Of a DNA stretch of 64,000 nucleotides, positions 52,087-58,456 are shown piece by piece. This stretch comes from Kushneria avicenniae. Its GTDB lineage: Bacteria > Pseudomonadota > Gammaproteobacteria > Pseudomonadales > Halomonadaceae. The DNA is taken from the NCBI RefSeq assembly GCF_900112585.1, contig NZ_FOLY01000003.1:248001-312000 (forward strand), read 5' to 3'. Below the pieces are notes generated by a model, which saw only the letters and a program-made list of their open reading frames with translations, made no database searches and was not told the origin of the DNA. Position numbers and translations under genes: made by a program. Each line of letters begins with the position of its first letter. Within the stretch, counting starts at the first letter, position 1.

Positions 52087-52123
52087 GAAGATCAGATGGT
52101 GTGAAACAGGAAAGGAGTCATTG

Positions 52124-52462
52124 GTGTCGACACTGAGCTGGGAAGAGTTTTCGAAAGTCGAGCTGCGCGTCGGGCGCATCACGCACGCCGAGGTCTTTGA
52201 AAAGGCACGCCGGCCGGCCTATGTGCTGCAGGTGGATTTCGGCCCCGAGATTGGCGTGCGCAAGTCCAGCGCCCAGATCACCGAGCTGTATGACCCCGAC
52301 GCCCTCGTGGGTCGCCTGGTCGTCGCGGTGACCAACTTCCCGCCCAAACAGATCGGCCCGATCATGTCGGAGTGCCTGGTCACCGGCTTTCACAACGAGG
52401 ATGGGGCCGTGGCGCTGTGCGTGCCGGATCAGGACGTACCGCTCGGCACCCGGCTGATGTAG
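52124..52462 (+). CDS. CsaA-like tRNA-binding-domain protein
   Basis: The protein has 112 residues with a GTG start at 52124, 6 bases after AAAGGAG (a TTG one codon earlier is possible). The OB-fold of the EMAP/Arc1p type is seen in FSKVELRVGRITHAEVFEKARRPAYVLQVDFG, GVRKSSAQIT and KQIGPIMSECLVTGF. CsaA proteins bind tRNA and were reported as export chaperones in Bacillus. It is followed after 10 bases by an HD hydrolase gene, probably as an operon. Confidence 0.85.
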   Translation: MSTLSWEEFSKVELRVGRITHAEVFEKARRPAYVLQVDFGPEIGVRKSSAQITELYDPDALVGRLVVAVTNFPPKQIGPIMSECLVTGFHNEDGAVALCVPDQDVPLGTRLM

Positions 52463-53137: not shown

Positions 53138-54541
53138 TCAGTCGGCCGCGCCAGGATCAAACAGCGACGCCATTTCCGGGGTGAAATGTGCCACATTGAT
53201 GCGCAGCGCATCCTCACGGCGATTACCGACGGTGAACACCGACCCTGGCAGCAGCAGCACATCATGCTCGGCCAGCCGACGGATGAAGGCGTCCATGTCC
53301 CGAATGCCGGGATGACGTGCCCACAGGAACATGCCACCCTCGGGGATAATGTCAAAGGTCCAGCCGCGGTCTTCCAGCAGCTTGCGGGTCGATGCCTGCT
53401 GCGCCATCAGGTCTCGCTGCACCTTGCGCATGTGGCGCAGATAGGAGCCATCGGAGAGGATCGTGTTCACGAAACGCTCGCAGAAGCTCGGTACCGACAC
53501 CGAGGTCAACAGCTTCAGTTGTAACAGCGGTTCGATCATCTCGGCGCAGCAGGCGATATAGCCGATGCGCAGCGATGAGGAGAGCGACTTCGAGAAGCTG
53601 CCGATGTAGATCACGTGATCCAGATCATCCAGATCGGCGAAACTCTGATGATCACCGCTGGAAAAGTCACCATAGACGTCATCCTCGATGATCAGAAAAT
53701 CATGCGCGATGGCCAGACGCAGAAGGTCAAAGGCGTTGCGCGCCGAGAGGCTGCCGCCGGTCGGATTGTGAAAGGTGCTGTTGCAGACCAGCGCCCGAAC
53801 CCGACGGCGGGTGAGCAGCTCGGCAATAAAGGCCGTATCCGGCCCGGTGGGCGTACGCGGTACGCCGATCACTTCCCCCCCGCCCAGCGCAATCAGCTTG
53901 TTGAGATTGCCGTTGCCGGGTTCATCGACCAGCACCACATCGCCCGGGCGAATCAGCAGCCGAATGACCAGATCAAGGGCCTGAGTAGCCCCCAGCGTGG
54001 TGATGATCTGAGTGGGCGGCACGCTGGCGCGAGTCTTGTTCTGCAGGTGCCTGGACAGTTGCTGGCGCAGCGGCCGATAGCCCTGGATGTCGCCATATTC
54101 GACCAGTGCCCGCTGCTCCAGACGGGCCGTGCGGCGAATCGAGCGGGCCAGCAGCTCGGTGTTGCGCCATTCGGTCGGCAGCCAGCCGCCGCTGAGCTTG
54201 ATGGCCTCGGGGCGACTCTGCAGCAGGGCAAACATCGGGTCGGACGGGTGCATGGGCGACACTGCATCGCTGATCTCGCGCGCGGCAAGATCGGACAGCG
54301 TATCGGCCCGCTGCCCACCGCTACCCTGCCCGGCCAGATGCCCACTCACGAAATAGCCGCGACCCTGCTGCGCCTCGATCAGCCCTTCTGCTGCAAGCCG
54401 GTCATACGCACTGACAATGGCATGATGGCTGGTGCGGCTCTCGTTGATCTGATGACGAATGGAAGGCAGCCGCTGACCGGCCGACCACTCGCCTTTCAGC
54501 AAACGCTCCCGCATGCGCTGATAGAACATTTCACTGTTCAT
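53138..54541 (-). CDS. MocR-family regulator (GntR winged helix fused to an aminotransferase fold)
   Basis: The protein has 467 residues. The GntR winged helix (EMFYQRMRERLLKGEWSAGQRLPSIRHQ, RGYFVSG) occupies the first 70. A linker follows, then a PLP fold I domain with GDIQGYRPLRQQLSRHL, CNSTFHNPTGGSLSARN, IIEDDVYGDF and the lysine in YIGSFSKSLSSSLRIGYI. MocR proteins sense PLP-amino-acid adducts. It is divergent from the AlaX-MFS-PLP enzyme-SAT gene set and probably controls it in response to an amino acid or its adduct. Confidence 0.9.
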   Translation of the reverse strand: MNSEMFYQRMRERLLKGEWSAGQRLPSIRHQINESRTSHHAIVSAYDRLAAEGLIEAQQGRGYFVSGHLAGQGSGGQRADTLSDLAAREISDAVSPMHPSDPMFALLQSRPEAIKLSGGWLPTEWRNTELLARSIRRTARLEQRALVEYGDIQGYRPLRQQLSRHLQNKTRASVPPTQIITTLGATQALDLVIRLLIRPGDVVLVDEPGNGNLNKLIALGGGEVIGVPRTPTGPDTAFIAELLTRRRVRALVCNSTFHNPTGGSLSARNAFDLLRLAIAHDFLIIEDDVYGDFSSGDHQSFADLDDLDHVIYIGSFSKSLSSSLRIGYIACCAEMIEPLLQLKLLTSVSVPSFCERFVNTILSDGSYLRHMRKVQRDLMAQQASTRKLLEDRGWTFDIIPEGGMFLWARHPGIRDMDAFIRRLAEHDVLLLPGSVFTVGNRREDALRINVAHFTPEMASLFDPGAAD

Positions 54542-54654
54542 TCGACGGCTCTCCCGGGGCGCCGCTGATGCGATCCGATCACCTCTCCGGCTCGGAATCG
54601 GGCCGTACCGGCGCCCTGTTTATCCGAGGCTTTCAAATACTTCTCAACAATCTA

Positions 54655-54709
54655 TCACTGTTTGTTAAATCGCTCTAACAGTTCGCTGGAAATCTTTCTC
54701 ACTGTTTGT
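54655..54709. promoter_or_regulatory. Direct-repeat MocR operator candidate
   Basis: TCACTGTTTGT occurs at 54655-54665 and again at 54699-54709, a 44-bp (four-turn) spacing, with an inverted AACAGT at 54677-54682 between them. A degenerate copy, TCACTGTTCAT, covers the mocR start codon (54531-54541). Direct repeats are the usual MocR target form. Confidence 0.65.
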
Positions 54710-54810
54710 CCCGCAAGGCTTTAAACGTGTGAGCATCAGGACTGACGTTGCGACAACCGGTCCCTTTCATGTCCCTGTATCAGGCGTTTATCGACAGGAA
54801 GAAAAGTCAG

Positions 54811-55596
54811 ATGCGTACTACCGAAAAGCTCTATTACCACGACCAGTACCTGTGTCAGGCCAGCGCCCGAATTGCCGCGCTGCATGCTGAAGCCATCGAA
54901 CTCGATCGGACCGTGGCCTTTCCCGAGGGGGGCGGTCAGGAAGCCGATATCGGCACCATCGAGACGCCCGTCGGCACCTTTCGCTTTGTATGGACCAAAA
55001 AACTCTATGGCACGCCGCTCAACATCGAAGGCTTTACCGGCGTCAAGGCCGGCGGCGTGGTGCTGCATCTGATCCATCCGGACGATATCGAAGGGCTCGG
55101 GGCGCTCGAGATCGACATGCCCGTGACCATCCGTATCGATGTCGAGCGACGAGCGCGACTGACGCTGTCGCACACTGCCAGCCATTTCCTCTACGCCGCG
55201 GCCCTGAATCATCAGCCCGAGCTCAAGAGTCTGACCATCGGGTGTCACATCAAGGAAGACGGCGCCCGATTCGATTTTCTGGTCGATGAATCCTTCGATA
55301 CCGCCTGTGTCAGTGCCATCGAGTCGGAGGCCAACCGGCTGATGGCCGACAACCTGCCGATCATCACCGATCATCTGGACGCCCACTACGATGCACGCTT
55401 CTGGCAGTACGGCGATATCTACATCCCGTGCGGTGGAACGCATCTGGAATCGCCCGAAGCGGTTGGCACGATACAGGTCAGACGCAAGAACACCGGCAAA
55501 AGCAAGGAGCGTCTGATCTGTGCCTTCGAGAATGCCCGTATCGATACGAGCGCCTATCACATCGAACCCGAGCGATATGCGGAGACCGTCTCATGA
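54811..55596 (+). CDS. Free-standing alanyl-tRNA editing protein (AlaX-like)
   Basis: The protein has 261 residues from the ATG at 54811; an in-frame ATG at 54769 is an alternative. The AlaRS editing-domain signature is complete: FPEGGGQEADIG near residue 38, LSHTASHFLYAA with the HxxxH zinc ligands (121, 125), and IPCGGTHLESP with CxxxH (207, 211). AlaX proteins hydrolyse mischarged Ser-, Gly- or Ala-tRNA. It is the first gene of a set with exporter and PLP enzyme, which suggests self-protection by clearing a mischarged amino-acid analogue. It overlaps the next gene by 4 bases. Confidence 0.87.
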   Translation: MRTTEKLYYHDQYLCQASARIAALHAEAIELDRTVAFPEGGGQEADIGTIETPVGTFRFVWTKKLYGTPLNIEGFTGVKAGGVVLHLIHPDDIEGLGALEIDMPVTIRIDVERRARLTLSHTASHFLYAAALNHQPELKSLTIGCHIKEDGARFDFLVDESFDTACVSAIESEANRLMADNLPIITDHLDAHYDARFWQYGDIYIPCGGTHLESPEAVGTIQVRRKNTGKSKERLICAFENARIDTSAYHIEPERYAETVS

Positions 55597-56801
55597 GGAC
55601 GCCCCTGCCCTTTCGAACCTGGCTCTACTTTGGCGCCCAGTCCATCAATCTGACCACGGCCGTCATGTCAGTGACGATGGCGGCCATCGTGGGCGCCGAG
55701 ATTGCCGGCAATGAAACACTGGCTACCCTGCCCTACGGCTTTCAGTTTCTGACCCTGATGCTGGCCACCTATCCGGCCTCAAGGCTCATGAGCCAGCTGG
55801 GTCGGCGCAGCGGTTTTCTGATCGGCAACGCCTTTCTCGCCCTGTCAGGCGGTACAGGTTATCTGGCCGTACAGGGTGAGAGCTTTGTGCTGCTGACCCT
55901 CTCCCATGGCGCTCTGGGCATCTATATCGCGTTTGCCAACTTCAATCGCTTTGCGGCCACGGATGGCCTGCGAGACAGCCTGAAATCGCGCGCCATGTCG
56001 CTGGTCGTGGCGGGCGGTGTGCTGGCCGCCATCATCGGTCCGCTGGCCTCCGCCATGTTCCGGGACATCCCGGGATACAGTCACTTTGCCCTGAGCTACA
56101 GTCTCTTTATTCCACTGGCAATTTTGTCCAGCTGCATCGCGGTACTGCTGCCGGAAAGCACCTCTCATGCGCCGAGTGCCAAAACAACCGATACCGAACG
56201 CCCCGGCCGGATACTCGGCCAGCGTCGGGTGCTGCTGGCCATCGCCGTGTCGGCCCTTGGCTATGGCATCATGAATCTGCTGATGATTCAGGCCTCACTG
56301 CAGATGCACGCCCATGCCCCCCCCTTTGATGACGTCAACACGGCCATTCAGTGGCACGTGCTGGCCATGTTCATTCCTTCCTTCTTTACCGGACGCCTGA
56401 TCGATCGCTTCGGCCATCAGGCCATGATCTCGCTGGGCCTTGGGCTTCTAATCACGACAGCGCTTCTCAATGTGGCCACCCAGGGCTGGTTCAACATGAC
56501 CCTGGCCCTGATCGTCCTGGGGCTGGGGTGGAACTTTACTTATATCGGTGGCGGCGCTCTGCTGGCCAATACGGTCGGCGACAGCGCCCTGGCCATGCGA
56601 CTACAGGGGATCAACGATATGGCGATTGCGGTCATGGCCACACTGGGGGCCTTTCTGCCGGCCGTCCTGCAGACCACCATCGGCTGGCAGGGCACCAATC
56701 TGATCGCCTCGGCCCTGTGCATCATCATGCTGCTGGCGGTACTGATGGTGTTCTCTCGGCGCCGCCATGATGCCTTTGTCTCGGGAGCGGCGGGATCATG
56801 A
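55593..56801 (+). CDS. MFS transporter, probable exporter of the cluster product
   Basis: The protein has 402 residues and about 12 helices. The first half has QFLTLMLATYPASRLMSQLGRRSGFLIGNAF with the loop 2-3 motif, and the second half starts after a polar loop near residue 200. It belongs to a broad MFS group often annotated as drug or amino-acid exporters. Overlaps of 4 bases with both alaX and the PLP-enzyme gene (ATGA on each side) show tight co-expression. Confidence 0.85.
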   Translation: MRTPLPFRTWLYFGAQSINLTTAVMSVTMAAIVGAEIAGNETLATLPYGFQFLTLMLATYPASRLMSQLGRRSGFLIGNAFLALSGGTGYLAVQGESFVLLTLSHGALGIYIAFANFNRFAATDGLRDSLKSRAMSLVVAGGVLAAIIGPLASAMFRDIPGYSHFALSYSLFIPLAILSSCIAVLLPESTSHAPSAKTTDTERPGRILGQRRVLLAIAVSALGYGIMNLLMIQASLQMHAHAPPFDDVNTAIQWHVLAMFIPSFFTGRLIDRFGHQAMISLGLGLLITTALLNVATQGWFNMTLALIVLGLGWNFTYIGGGALLANTVGDSALAMRLQGINDMAIAVMATLGAFLPAVLQTTIGWQGTNLIASALCIIMLLAVLMVFSRRRHDAFVSGAAGS

Positions 56802-57697
56802 GCCGCCTGATCGACTGTGATGCCCGGCTGTCCATCAAGCTCGAGCTGGACAACCCCGGCGGCAGCCACAAGTTTCGTGCTGCCAGCCATATCGTGGAAC
56901 GCGCCATCGCCCGTGGCGACATGGTGCCCGGACAGACGACGGTGATCGAAAAGACCGGCGGCAACTTCGGCTTCGGCCTGCTGGCCGCCTGCCAGAAGCA
57001 TGGTATTGAAGTCGCGCTGGCCATCGGGCCGGGCTTCAGTCAGTACAAGCGCGATCTGCTCGAAGGGCTGGGTGCGGAGCTGATCGGCAAGGCGCAGTTG
57101 CAGGCGGGAGCGACCCCACGCGAGGTCATCGACTACCATCTCGCCCATCAGCACGCTCTGGGACGGCACTACTACTACACCGATCAGTTCAACAATCCCG
57201 GCAATGTTGACGCGCACCGCCGCTTTACCGGCGTCGATCTGGGCCGCCAGCTGATCAGTGCGGGCCATTCACGCCGTCTGCTTTTTGTCGGCTGTGCCGG
57301 TACCGGTGCCAGCTTTACTGGCGTGGTCCGGGCCCTGCGCGATCTGGACTTTGATGTCCGGGCCGTCATGGTCGAGCCGGAGGGATGCGACACGCTGGCC
57401 GCTCAATTCGTGGAACATCGTCTCGAAGGCATGTGTGTCGGGGTGACGCCCCCCTTTCTGGACTGGACGCTGGTCAATGAGGTCTTCAAGGCCAACCTTG
57501 ATGACGTGCTTGCCGCTCAGCGCCGCTTCTATTGCGACCAGGGGTTCCATGTCGGCAACACCACGGGCGCCTGCCTGGCCGTGGCTCACCAATTGCGCGA
57601 GCAGGCCACCCTCGAGGATCGTCACATTGTCACGCTCGGCTATGACGGCGGGCACTGGTACCCGGACCTGATGCAGGAGTCGCGCAACGCGGCATGA
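56798..57697 (+). CDS. Cysteine-synthase-like PLP enzyme (fold type II), diverged
   Basis: The protein has 299 residues. The PLP lysine is in NPGGSHKFRAASHIVERA (Lys25), the substrate loop is EKTGGNFGFGLL (normally TSGNTG), the phosphate-binding turn is VGCAGTGASFTGVVRAL, and the C-terminal loop is HVGNTTGACLAVA (normally VGISSGA). The N-terminus is about 15-20 residues shorter than in CysK. It should catalyse beta-replacement on O-acetylserine or a related amino acid, but the changed substrate loop points to a product other than cysteine. Confidence 0.82.
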   Translation: MSRLIDCDARLSIKLELDNPGGSHKFRAASHIVERAIARGDMVPGQTTVIEKTGGNFGFGLLAACQKHGIEVALAIGPGFSQYKRDLLEGLGAELIGKAQLQAGATPREVIDYHLAHQHALGRHYYYTDQFNNPGNVDAHRRFTGVDLGRQLISAGHSRRLLFVGCAGTGASFTGVVRALRDLDFDVRAVMVEPEGCDTLAAQFVEHRLEGMCVGVTPPFLDWTLVNEVFKANLDDVLAAQRRFYCDQGFHVGNTTGACLAVAHQLREQATLEDRHIVTLGYDGGHWYPDLMQESRNAA

Positions 57698-57808
57698 ACG
57701 TACGCGCCTGAAGCAAAACAACAACACAAGACAATAACGCCCCATACGCACAACATCCGTCCCTGCCTTCACGGCAGGCCTGATATGCCTTGATTCGGGA
57801 TCATCTGG
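57698..57808 (+). other. Gap between the PLP-enzyme and acetyltransferase genes
   Basis: A 111-base gap with an A-rich, CAA-rich stretch and a hairpin CCTGCC/GGCAGG (about 57763-57779) lacking a T run. It may hold a processing signal or a secondary promoter. Confidence 0.3.
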
Positions 57809-58456
57809 ATGCGGGAACAGCACATTTTTCACTATACCCTGGCGCGCCTGGCGCCCTTCCTTGAGCGTGCCACTCTGGAAGTGCTCAGCGAACGCGATTT
57901 CAGCACCGCCATGGGACTGGCCGGCGAGGACCTTGCCGCGCTGATCGAGAGCGATCCTTCCCACCGGGGGCTTGAGCAGTGCTATCTGGAGACCTGCTCC
58001 CCTTTTATCGCCGTGGCGACCTATCGTCTCGCGCATGCCTGCTGGCCATGCGAGCCCATGCTGGCGATGAAGCTTTGCCACGCCGCCCGGGTCGCCACCA
58101 GTGTCGAGATTCACCCGGGGGCCACCATCGGGCGGTGCTTCGTGGTCGATCACGGCACCGGTACCGTGATCGGCGAAACCACCGTGATTGGAAGGGACTG
58201 CACGATTCTCAATGCCGTCCTGCTCGGCTCAAGACGCATGAACGCCAACCAGCCGGGCAAGCGCCACCCGACTCTGGGAGATCGCGTCAGTGTCGGTGCC
58301 TATAGCCAGCTGCTGGGCAACATCATGATCGGCGATGACGTACGCATCCATCCATGGTCAGTGATTACCCGAGACATGCTGCCCTTCGAACGCGCCTGTG
58401 GCGTACCAATGAACCCGCTTCCCCAGGACATGCCCGGCAGTATCCTGACCCAGTAA
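57809..58456 (+). CDS. Serine O-acetyltransferase-like enzyme (CysE family, short form)
   Basis: The protein has 215 residues, shorter than E. coli CysE (273) because the N-terminal helical part is reduced. The left-handed beta-helix shows HPGATIGRCFVVDHGTGTVIGETTVIG with catalytic His115, KRHPTLGD with His153, and LGNIMIGDDVRIHPWSVITRDM. It would make O-acetylserine for the PLP enzyme just upstream. It lacks the usual GVPARIVG end, reading GVPMNPLPQDM. Confidence 0.85.
   Translation: MREQHIFHYTLARLAPFLERATLEVLSERDFSTAMGLAGEDLAALIESDPSHRGLEQCYLETCSPFIAVATYRLAHACWPCEPMLAMKLCHAARVATSVEIHPGATIGRCFVVDHGTGTVIGETTVIGRDCTILNAVLLGSRRMNANQPGKRHPTLGDRVSVGAYSQLLGNIMIGDDVRIHPWSVITRDMLPFERACGVPMNPLPQDMPGSILTQ

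What the first reader, a model, noticed from the sequence alone, without database searches (positions are those of the whole stretch)
54531..58456. Compact candidate pathway for a non-proteinogenic amino acid with tRNA-editing self-protection
Seen: a MocR regulator diverges from AlaX-like editing protein, MFS transporter and cysteine-synthase-like enzyme genes joined by ATGA overlaps, followed by a short serine-acetyltransferase-like gene. Known: SAT plus fold-II PLP enzymes make beta-substituted alanines by way of O-acetylserine; AlaX proteins clear mischarged tRNAs. Inference: the set makes an alanine- or serine-like analogue, exports it, and uses the free-standing editing domain to stop its misincorporation. 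The altered substrate loop (TGGNFG instead of TSGNTG) argues against ordinary cysteine synthesis.
Basis: partly seen in the sequence, partly recalled or inferred. Interest (0 to 1): 0.88.

Follow-up and report, generated by a model that had tools for sequence, protein, structure and literature searches.

The report
AlaX-guarded cysteine-synthase-like pathway module
A five-gene block in a salt-loving bacterium appears to make and export an unusual amino acid while an RNA-proofreading protein keeps that amino acid out of the cell's own proteins; relatives of the key enzyme sit beside the same kind of proofreader in several unrelated gene clusters.

Summary
The five genes are real and correctly placed: MocR, AlaX, MFS exporter, fold-II PLP enzyme, short SAT, with two ATGA overlaps. 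The genome is Kushneria-like. The block is a discrete module: whole in 4 of 10 genus genomes, reduced to MocR-AlaX in one, absent at the same site in another.

The PLP enzyme belongs to a supported clade (98/96) apart from the ordinary CysK-, CysM-, CBS- and SbnA-like rows tested. Its members carry [TS]GGN plus a "CD" motif (13 of 13, against 0 of 23). All 13 members reached through PLP queries have AlaX within 8 kb; 0 of 16 ordinary paralogues do within 100 kb. Partners vary: sulfur-carrier genes (JAMM/ThiS-like/MoeB); NRPS A domain, PCP, SyrB2-like halogenase and thioesterase; methyltransferase with an AzlC-family protein; a second ValRS.

Best reading: an O-acetylserine-derived amino-acid antimetabolite with export and trans-editing self-protection (0.6). 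No product or activity is shown. Cysteine overproduction is the main rival, since the Pseudomonas-like clusters resemble sulfur-carrier cysteine synthesis. The precedent, FthB/FthC for fluorothreonine, uses another deacylase family. My searches of the held library listed no paper tying AlaX to such clusters (some lists capped).

The parts
53138..54541 (-). MocR-type regulator (GntR domain + aminotransferase-like domain), divergent from the operon
   Evidence: PF00392 and PF00155; kept in all five Kushneria-type loci that have AlaX
54657..54709 (.). Candidate MocR operator: ACTGTTTGT 54657-54665, inverted AACAGT 54677-54682, ACTGTTTGT 54701-54709
   Evidence: positions; block conserved in five loci; binding not tested, and the likeness to MocR sites is recalled
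54811..55596 (+). AlaX-type free-standing aminoacyl-tRNA editing protein (start may be ATG 54769)
   Evidence: NF040865 106.8 bits, below its cut-off; solved AlaX-M 2e1b E 1.3e-15; HTASH and CGGTH present
55593..56801 (+). MFS transporter, presumed exporter
   Evidence: PF07690 69.7 bits; 48% identical counterpart in the same set in L011
56798..57697 (+). Fold-II PLP enzyme of the GGN/CD clade (K25, TGGNFG, EPEGCD)
   Evidence: PF00291 146.7 bits; cysKM 153 bits against cut-off 344; clade and signature
57809..58456 (+). Short serine-O-acetyltransferase-like hexapeptide protein
   Evidence: TIGR01172 136.4 bits, below cut-off 210.65; PF00132; motifs

Best explanation
The block is a compact amino-acid antimetabolite module. 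SAT acetylates serine (or a serine-like acceptor). The PLP enzyme, by way of an aminoacrylate-type intermediate, puts a nucleophile on the beta carbon, in the window's branch probably not sulfide. The MFS protein exports the product. AlaX hydrolyses tRNA mischarged with the product, so the producer does not build it into its own proteins. MocR controls the operon through the repeats between the two divergent genes. Shown: gene content, intact catalytic motifs, a separate PLP clade, steady company of AlaX and SAT, presence/absence as a unit, and AlaX kept where the other operon genes are lost in one genome. Inferred: every catalytic step, the product and its small Ala/Val/Ser-like size, export, regulation and deacylation.
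For: The 13 AlaX-linked PLP enzymes form one side of a branch at 98/96 after the signature columns were removed, with GGN+CD in 13 of 13 linked and 0 of 23 unlinked rows. All 13 clade members reached by PLP queries have AlaX within 8 kb, against 0 of 16 ordinary paralogues in seven genomes within 100 kb. SAT and a transporter of a type known for amino-acid or drug export recur with it. The genome holds two ordinary TSGN paralogues, so the module is not needed for cysteine. L012 places PLP, SAT and AlaX among A domain, PCP, halogenase (TIGR01762 424.8 bits, cut-off 226.3) and thioesterase. Resistance-like remnants: G001 keeps only MocR-AlaX; a Cetobacterium plasmid has divergent MocR-AlaX and an Acinetobacter plasmid LysR-AlaX-LysE. 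Precedent in print for deacylase plus exporter: FthB/FthC (passages).
Against: No product, activity or expression data. In Pseudomonas-like genomes and G415 the partners are sulfur-carrier genes, which point to a sulfur nucleophile and perhaps plain cysteine. In L012 AlaX may serve the predicted chlorinated product, since a Salmonella plasmid has A domain-PCP-chlorinase-AlaX-transporter without PLP or SAT. The linked AlaX proteins are not one clade. G001's retained AlaX could also mean an independent housekeeping role. The tree carries long-branch warnings for the window group. Xenorhabdus was reached through a Salmonella PLP that had itself been found with AlaX as bait.
Confidence: 0.6

Rival explanations
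1. The module overproduces and exports ordinary cysteine (or O-acetylserine) for redox or sulfur needs, and AlaX clears tRNAs mischarged with the surplus cysteine or serine.
For: Pseudomonas-like and G415 members sit with JAMM, a ThiS/MoaD-like carrier and MoeB, the kind of set described with cysteine synthase in PMC1779556 (passages). The L012 EamA gene is nearest to the O-acetylserine/cysteine exporter model (209.9 bits, cut-off 472). The Xenorhabdus plasmid carries ValRS and a serine-dehydratase-alpha-type protein; that ValRS mischarges cysteine is recalled.
Against: The window genome already has two ordinary paralogues. The window enzyme scores 153 bits on cysKM against a cut-off of 344 and sits on a long branch. 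No sulfur-supply gene was recognised among the window neighbours scanned. L012 is in a halogenase/NRPS setting.
Confidence: 0.22
2. The PLP enzyme and SAT make 2,3-diaminopropionate or a like building block for a siderophore or peptide assembled elsewhere; AlaX is incidental.
For: The SbnA model is among the better matches (124 bits). L012 and L093 have NRPS parts beside the PLP enzyme.
Against: Far below the SbnA cut-off of 350. SbnA works with SbnB on O-phosphoserine (recalled) and no SbnB-like gene was recognised beside it. AlaX recurs too steadily to be incidental. The SbnA-like loop rows (SSGN) lie outside the clade.
Confidence: 0.07
3. AlaX is plain translational quality control that happens to share a mobile or co-regulated block with an amino-acid metabolism set.
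For: AlaX proteins are known to remove Ser and Gly from tRNA-Ala (PMC11295145 passages). Unlinked AlaX genes occur. G001 keeps MocR-AlaX without the enzymes.
Against: AlaX accompanies the clade in several lineages with different AlaX types, and 5 of 10 genus genomes lack this AlaX altogether.
Confidence: 0.09

Closest known systems
FthB/FthC self-protection of 4-fluorothreonine producers (Streptomyces cattleya and MA37)
   Same: A free-standing aminoacyl-tRNA deacylase plus an exporter protect the maker of a toxic amino acid (PMC7408626 passages)
   Different: FthB is described as ProXp-ST1-related (PMC11295145 passages), not AlaX; the product route is unlike SAT + beta-replacement; here no activity is shown
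SAT + fold-II PLP routes to beta-substituted alanines (SbnA, O-ureidoserine synthase, cyanoalanine synthase; routes recalled)
   Same: Same fold family (PF00291) and, in several, an O-acetylserine donor
   Different: TGGN/CD signature, separate clade against the rows tested, AlaX always close by in the members found; O-ureidoserine synthase 3x43 is only a distant match (E 2.3e-24)
CytC/SyrB-type halogenated amino-acid clusters
   Same: L012 has A domain, PCP, SyrB2-like halogenase and thioesterase, with AlaX between halogenase and thioesterase
   Different: The Kushneria block has no halogenase, A domain or PCP
Sulfur-carrier cysteine operons (row 4c of Iyer et al. 2006, PMC1779556)
   Same: Pseudomonas-like and G415 clusters combine JAMM, carrier, MoeB and a cysteine-synthase-like enzyme
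   Different: AlaX, SAT and exporter are added; the passages seen name no AlaX; the window's block has no carrier genes

Membership tests
Ordinary cysteine synthase (CysK/CysM) | Score above the curated cut-off of cysKM, cysK or cysM models | tested here: not met
   cysKM 153.4 of 344.15, cysK 144.7 of 350.95, cysM 108.3 of 394.2 bits
Ordinary cysteine synthase (CysK/CysM) | Branches with CysK or CysM rows | tested here: not met
   13 linked rows apart from 23 others at 98/96; long-branch warning noted; reference set is paralogues of 7 genomes plus 7 plasmid rows
Ordinary cysteine synthase (CysK/CysM) | Makes cysteine from O-acetylserine and sulfide | not testable with these tools
   needs enzyme assay
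SbnA-type diaminopropionate synthase | TIGR03945 cut-off | tested here: not met
   124.3 of 349.95 bits
AlaX editing proteins | Metal-binding HxxxH and CxxxH motifs of the editing site | tested here: met
   HTASH and CGGTH
AlaX editing proteins | AlaXM model cut-off | tested here: not met
   106.8 of 300 bits; a distant AlaX-like protein
AlaX editing proteins | Deacylates mischarged tRNA | not testable with these tools
   needs tRNA assay
Serine O-acetyltransferase | cysE model cut-off | tested here: not met
   136.4 of 210.65 bits; hexapeptide fold and catalytic-type motifs present
Amino-acid antimetabolite cluster with trans-editing self-protection (FthB/FthC-like system) | Deacylase gene and exporter gene in one cluster with biosynthetic genes | tested here: met
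   AlaX, MFS, PLP, SAT in one operon
Amino-acid antimetabolite cluster with trans-editing self-protection (FthB/FthC-like system) | Toxic amino-acid product and a deacylase that acts on product-charged tRNA | not testable with these tools
   needs metabolite and tRNA assays

The most novel reading that the evidence does not exclude
A distinct clade of O-acetylserine-using PLP enzymes (GGN/CD type) is dedicated to toxic amino acids that mimic a small protein amino acid. AlaX-type editing proteins are their standing antidote, taken up more than once. AlaX beside such an enzyme would then be a genome-mining mark for unknown amino-acid antibiotics, and part of what is annotated as alanyl-tRNA editing would be self-resistance, not housekeeping.
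Probability: 0.5. Interest if true: 0.82.

Novelty: new variant of a known kind. Interest (0 to 1): 0.68.

Why it matters
It would give a biological reason for orphan AlaX genes, define a subfamily inside an enzyme family usually annotated as cysteine synthase, and offer a simple mark (GGN/CD PLP enzyme + SAT + AlaX + exporter) for finding unknown amino-acid antimetabolites. It would also add a second deacylase type to the study of how producers avoid building their own product into protein.

Tried and rejected
Ordinary cysteine operon: rejected as first choice for the window (tree, scores, the genome's own paralogues), kept as the main rival. SbnA-type synthesis: low scores, no SbnB-like gene recognised. 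CsaA-type gene (52118-52462) as part of the module: rejected, because it stays where the module is absent (G005). Plasmid searches with the window PLP and the L012 PLP: no match. E. coli genomes with the Salmonella cluster DNA: no match. Vibrio, Legionella and Nostoc neighbourhoods, within the flanks shown: no such set. Streptantibioticus cattleyicolor megaplasmid AlaX: I asked whether it lies beside fluorothreonine genes; the ORF list did not show this, so nothing is claimed. Two high scorers (G633, G581) are TSGN enzymes with no AlaX-motif ORF on the stretch read (in G581 only 1.2 kb lies upstream). Comamonas AlaX: the annotated gene is shorter than the match; left alone.

Limits: genome draws are samples and overlap (own and G004 recur). 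The one genome-contig scan used a single-sequence query and found only close kin. Outside Pseudomonadota only plasmid records were seen. Solved SbnA and O-ureidoserine synthase sequences were not in the tree. A-domain codes were read by eye with positions recalled from memory. The AlaX tree and PLP tree leave out G415 (broken PLP gene) and Comamonas. An earlier count gave 14/16; the right numbers for one search are 13 linked and 17 unlinked (entry 4 corrects it).
Full report
OBSERVATION. The window lies in an unnamed 3.6 Mb genome (G000:C10:248001-312000) whose named near relatives are Kushneria. The five genes are as described, with ATGA joints at 55593 and 56798. Domain matches are clear. 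PLP, SAT and AlaX score below the curated cut-offs of the NCBIfam models listed for them.

THE MODULE WITHIN THE GENUS. The PLP gene occurs in 4 of 10 genus genomes searched (own, G003, G004, G008, E 1e-40) and this AlaX in 5 of 10 (the same four plus G001, E 1e-20). The three other carriers keep MocR, AlaX, MFS, PLP and SAT in order between HD and u92, as in the window. G005 has CsaA, HD, u92 and NR with 118 bp between HD and u92, against 5,450 bp in the window. The other genomes without the gene were not resolved at this site: G009 has HD with a stop and no u92 on the stretch read, and G002, G006 and G007 gave no close HD hit or only a 48% one. G001 keeps MocR and AlaX but has lost MFS, PLP and SAT, with a short MFS remnant left. 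The MocR/AlaX spacer holds two direct ACTGTTTGT copies and an inverted AACAGT; the block is conserved, with small changes, in five loci. That layout fits a MocR operator (recalled; binding not tested).

OUTSIDE THE GENUS. With the PLP protein as query at E 1e-36: 3 of 390 genomes of the order (own, G004, G104) and 2 of 369 of the class (own, G690). G104 (L011) has SAT-AlaX-MFS-PLP in a row at 36, 40, 48 and 48% identity. G690 (L012) has SAT, an NRPS A domain, PLP, EamA and an Asd gene, then LysR on the other strand, then PCP, a SyrB2-like halogenase (2fct, E 2.4e-125), AlaX and a thioesterase, with a LysE/RhtB-type gene nearby. With a profile of six members: 7 of 398 genomes of the phylum (own, G004 and five of one genus, G096, G241, G280, G318, G334). 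In the two read at length (G318, G096) a divergent MocR-type gene and EamA precede; in G318 the next gene fuses JAMM, a MoaD/ThiS-like stretch, ThiF/MoeB and rhodanese (the carrier stretch is my reading, no Pfam model listed). With a profile of ten members: 5 of 369 of the class (own, G690, G415, and two TSGN enzymes, G633 and G581, without AlaX on the stretch read). G415 (L093) has JAMM, a carrier-like ORF, MoeB, PLP, SAT, AlaX and an NRPS C-A protein; its PLP gene is broken by a frameshift at the TGG codons and its second piece shows GCD. On plasmids: Salmonella serovar India (L017: AzlC-family, methyltransferase, SAT, PLP, divergent AlaX), found with AlaX as bait; and Xenorhabdus sp. TH1 (PLP, SAT, DMT, a serine-dehydratase-alpha-type protein, ValRS, and AlaX 7.4 kb from PLP; BrnQ and a decarboxylase across the record's start), found with the Salmonella PLP.

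THE PLP CLADE. In 30 aligned rows, 13 AlaX-linked enzymes have [TS]GGN and CD; 17 unlinked have neither. Six further plasmid CysK-type rows also have neither. A tree without those columns puts the 13 on one side of a branch at 98/96, with long-branch warnings for the window group. Salmonella is among these 13; G415 is not in the tree because its gene is broken. Of 13 clade members reached by PLP queries (own, G003, G004, G008, G104, G690, five Pseudomonas-like, G415, Xenorhabdus) all 13 have AlaX within 8 kb. Of 16 ordinary paralogues in seven genomes, 0 have an AlaX or AlaRS-type hit at E 1e-5 within 100 kb, by the coordinates. The linked AlaX proteins are not one clade: L012's pairs with an unlinked AlaX of G318 (100/99, long branches), while Kushneria and G104 group with the Cetobacterium protein.

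PRODUCT CLUES. The A domains of L012 and of a second Salmonella plasmid (L099: A domain, PCP, chlorinating enzyme at 446 bits, AlaX-like, DMT, hydrolase) read, by positions recalled from memory, as the threonine code, which suggests a chlorothreonine. This weakens L012 as proof for PLP-AlaX pairing, because AlaX there may serve the chlorinated product. It strengthens the wider point that AlaX-like proteins accompany clusters for odd amino acids. The L093 A domain reads by eye as valine-like; with ValRS, BrnQ and the AzlC-family protein (66 bits, cut-off 332) this hints at a small valine-like or alanine-like product, no more. In the Pseudomonas-like genomes and G415 the sulfur-carrier genes point to a sulfur nucleophile, so the nucleophile probably differs between branches.

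KNOWN WORK. Deacylase plus exporter as self-protection is known for 4-fluorothreonine (FthB/FthC; PMC7408626, passages). PMC11295145 (passages) calls FthB ProXp-ST1-related and says AlaX removes Ser and Gly from tRNA-Ala, the short form lacking tRNA specificity. PMC11415595 (passages) notes that free-standing deacylases can have specificities not predicted by their kinship, and that naturally made amino acids, including a beta-substituted alanine, enter translation. PMC1779556 (passages) describes operons of carrier, E1-like, JAB and cysteine synthase. Paper searches: 6 of 6 listed, none holding AlaX; 0 papers with MocR and alanyl-tRNA editing; lists capped at 15 of 33, 20 of 384 and 20 of 33; none listed ties AlaX to such clusters. 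Searches, on chlorothreonine and ValRS self-resistance, listed nothing on point (10 of 15 and 3 of 3 shown).

VERDICT. Real, conserved as a unit, and part of a wider pattern. The antimetabolite reading is best supported (0.6); cysteine overproduction is the main rival (0.22).

Noticed in passing
L099 6212-11291 (NZ_CP030220.1, Salmonella enterica plasmid): A domain, PCP, chlorinating enzyme, an AlaX-like protein annotated hypothetical, DMT transporter and hydrolase in a row, with a phosphopantetheinyl transferase nearby: looks like a chlorinated-threonine cluster with its own editing protein.
   Followed up: partly
L101 3420-5710 (NZ_CP065663.1, Acinetobacter johnsonii 15 kb plasmid): LysR, AlaX-like protein and LysE exporter alone: looks like a resistance-only cassette.
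   Followed up: partly
L016 6452-8756 (NZ_CP092523.1, Cetobacterium somerae plasmid): A MocR-type gene divergent from an AlaX that groups with the Kushneria AlaX, with no PLP enzyme of this kind in the stretch shown.
   Followed up: partly
L019/L023/L024 (NZ_CP147736.1, Xenorhabdus sp. TH1 plasmid): A 40 kb plasmid carries PLP, SAT, AlaX, a whole ValRS, BrnQ, a serine-dehydratase-alpha-type protein and a PLP decarboxylase among transposases.
   Followed up: partly
L093 9609-10524 (G415): The clade PLP gene is split by a frameshift inside the TGG codons next to a run of G; sequencing slip or real loss is not known.
   Followed up: no
L078 5333-5600 (G001): Deletion scar: MFS, PLP and SAT lost, MocR and AlaX kept, short MFS remnant left.
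   Followed up: yes
window 52118-52462: CsaA-type tRNA-binding protein (NF007493 above its cut-off) two genes from MocR; present where the module is absent, so an ordinary neighbour.
   Followed up: yes
L098 12001-12669 (NC_016113.1, Streptantibioticus cattleyicolor megaplasmid): An AlaX-like stretch 39% identical to the L012 AlaX, with a LysE-type ORF 1.6 kb away, in the organism known for fluorothreonine; no link to those genes was seen.
   Followed up: partly
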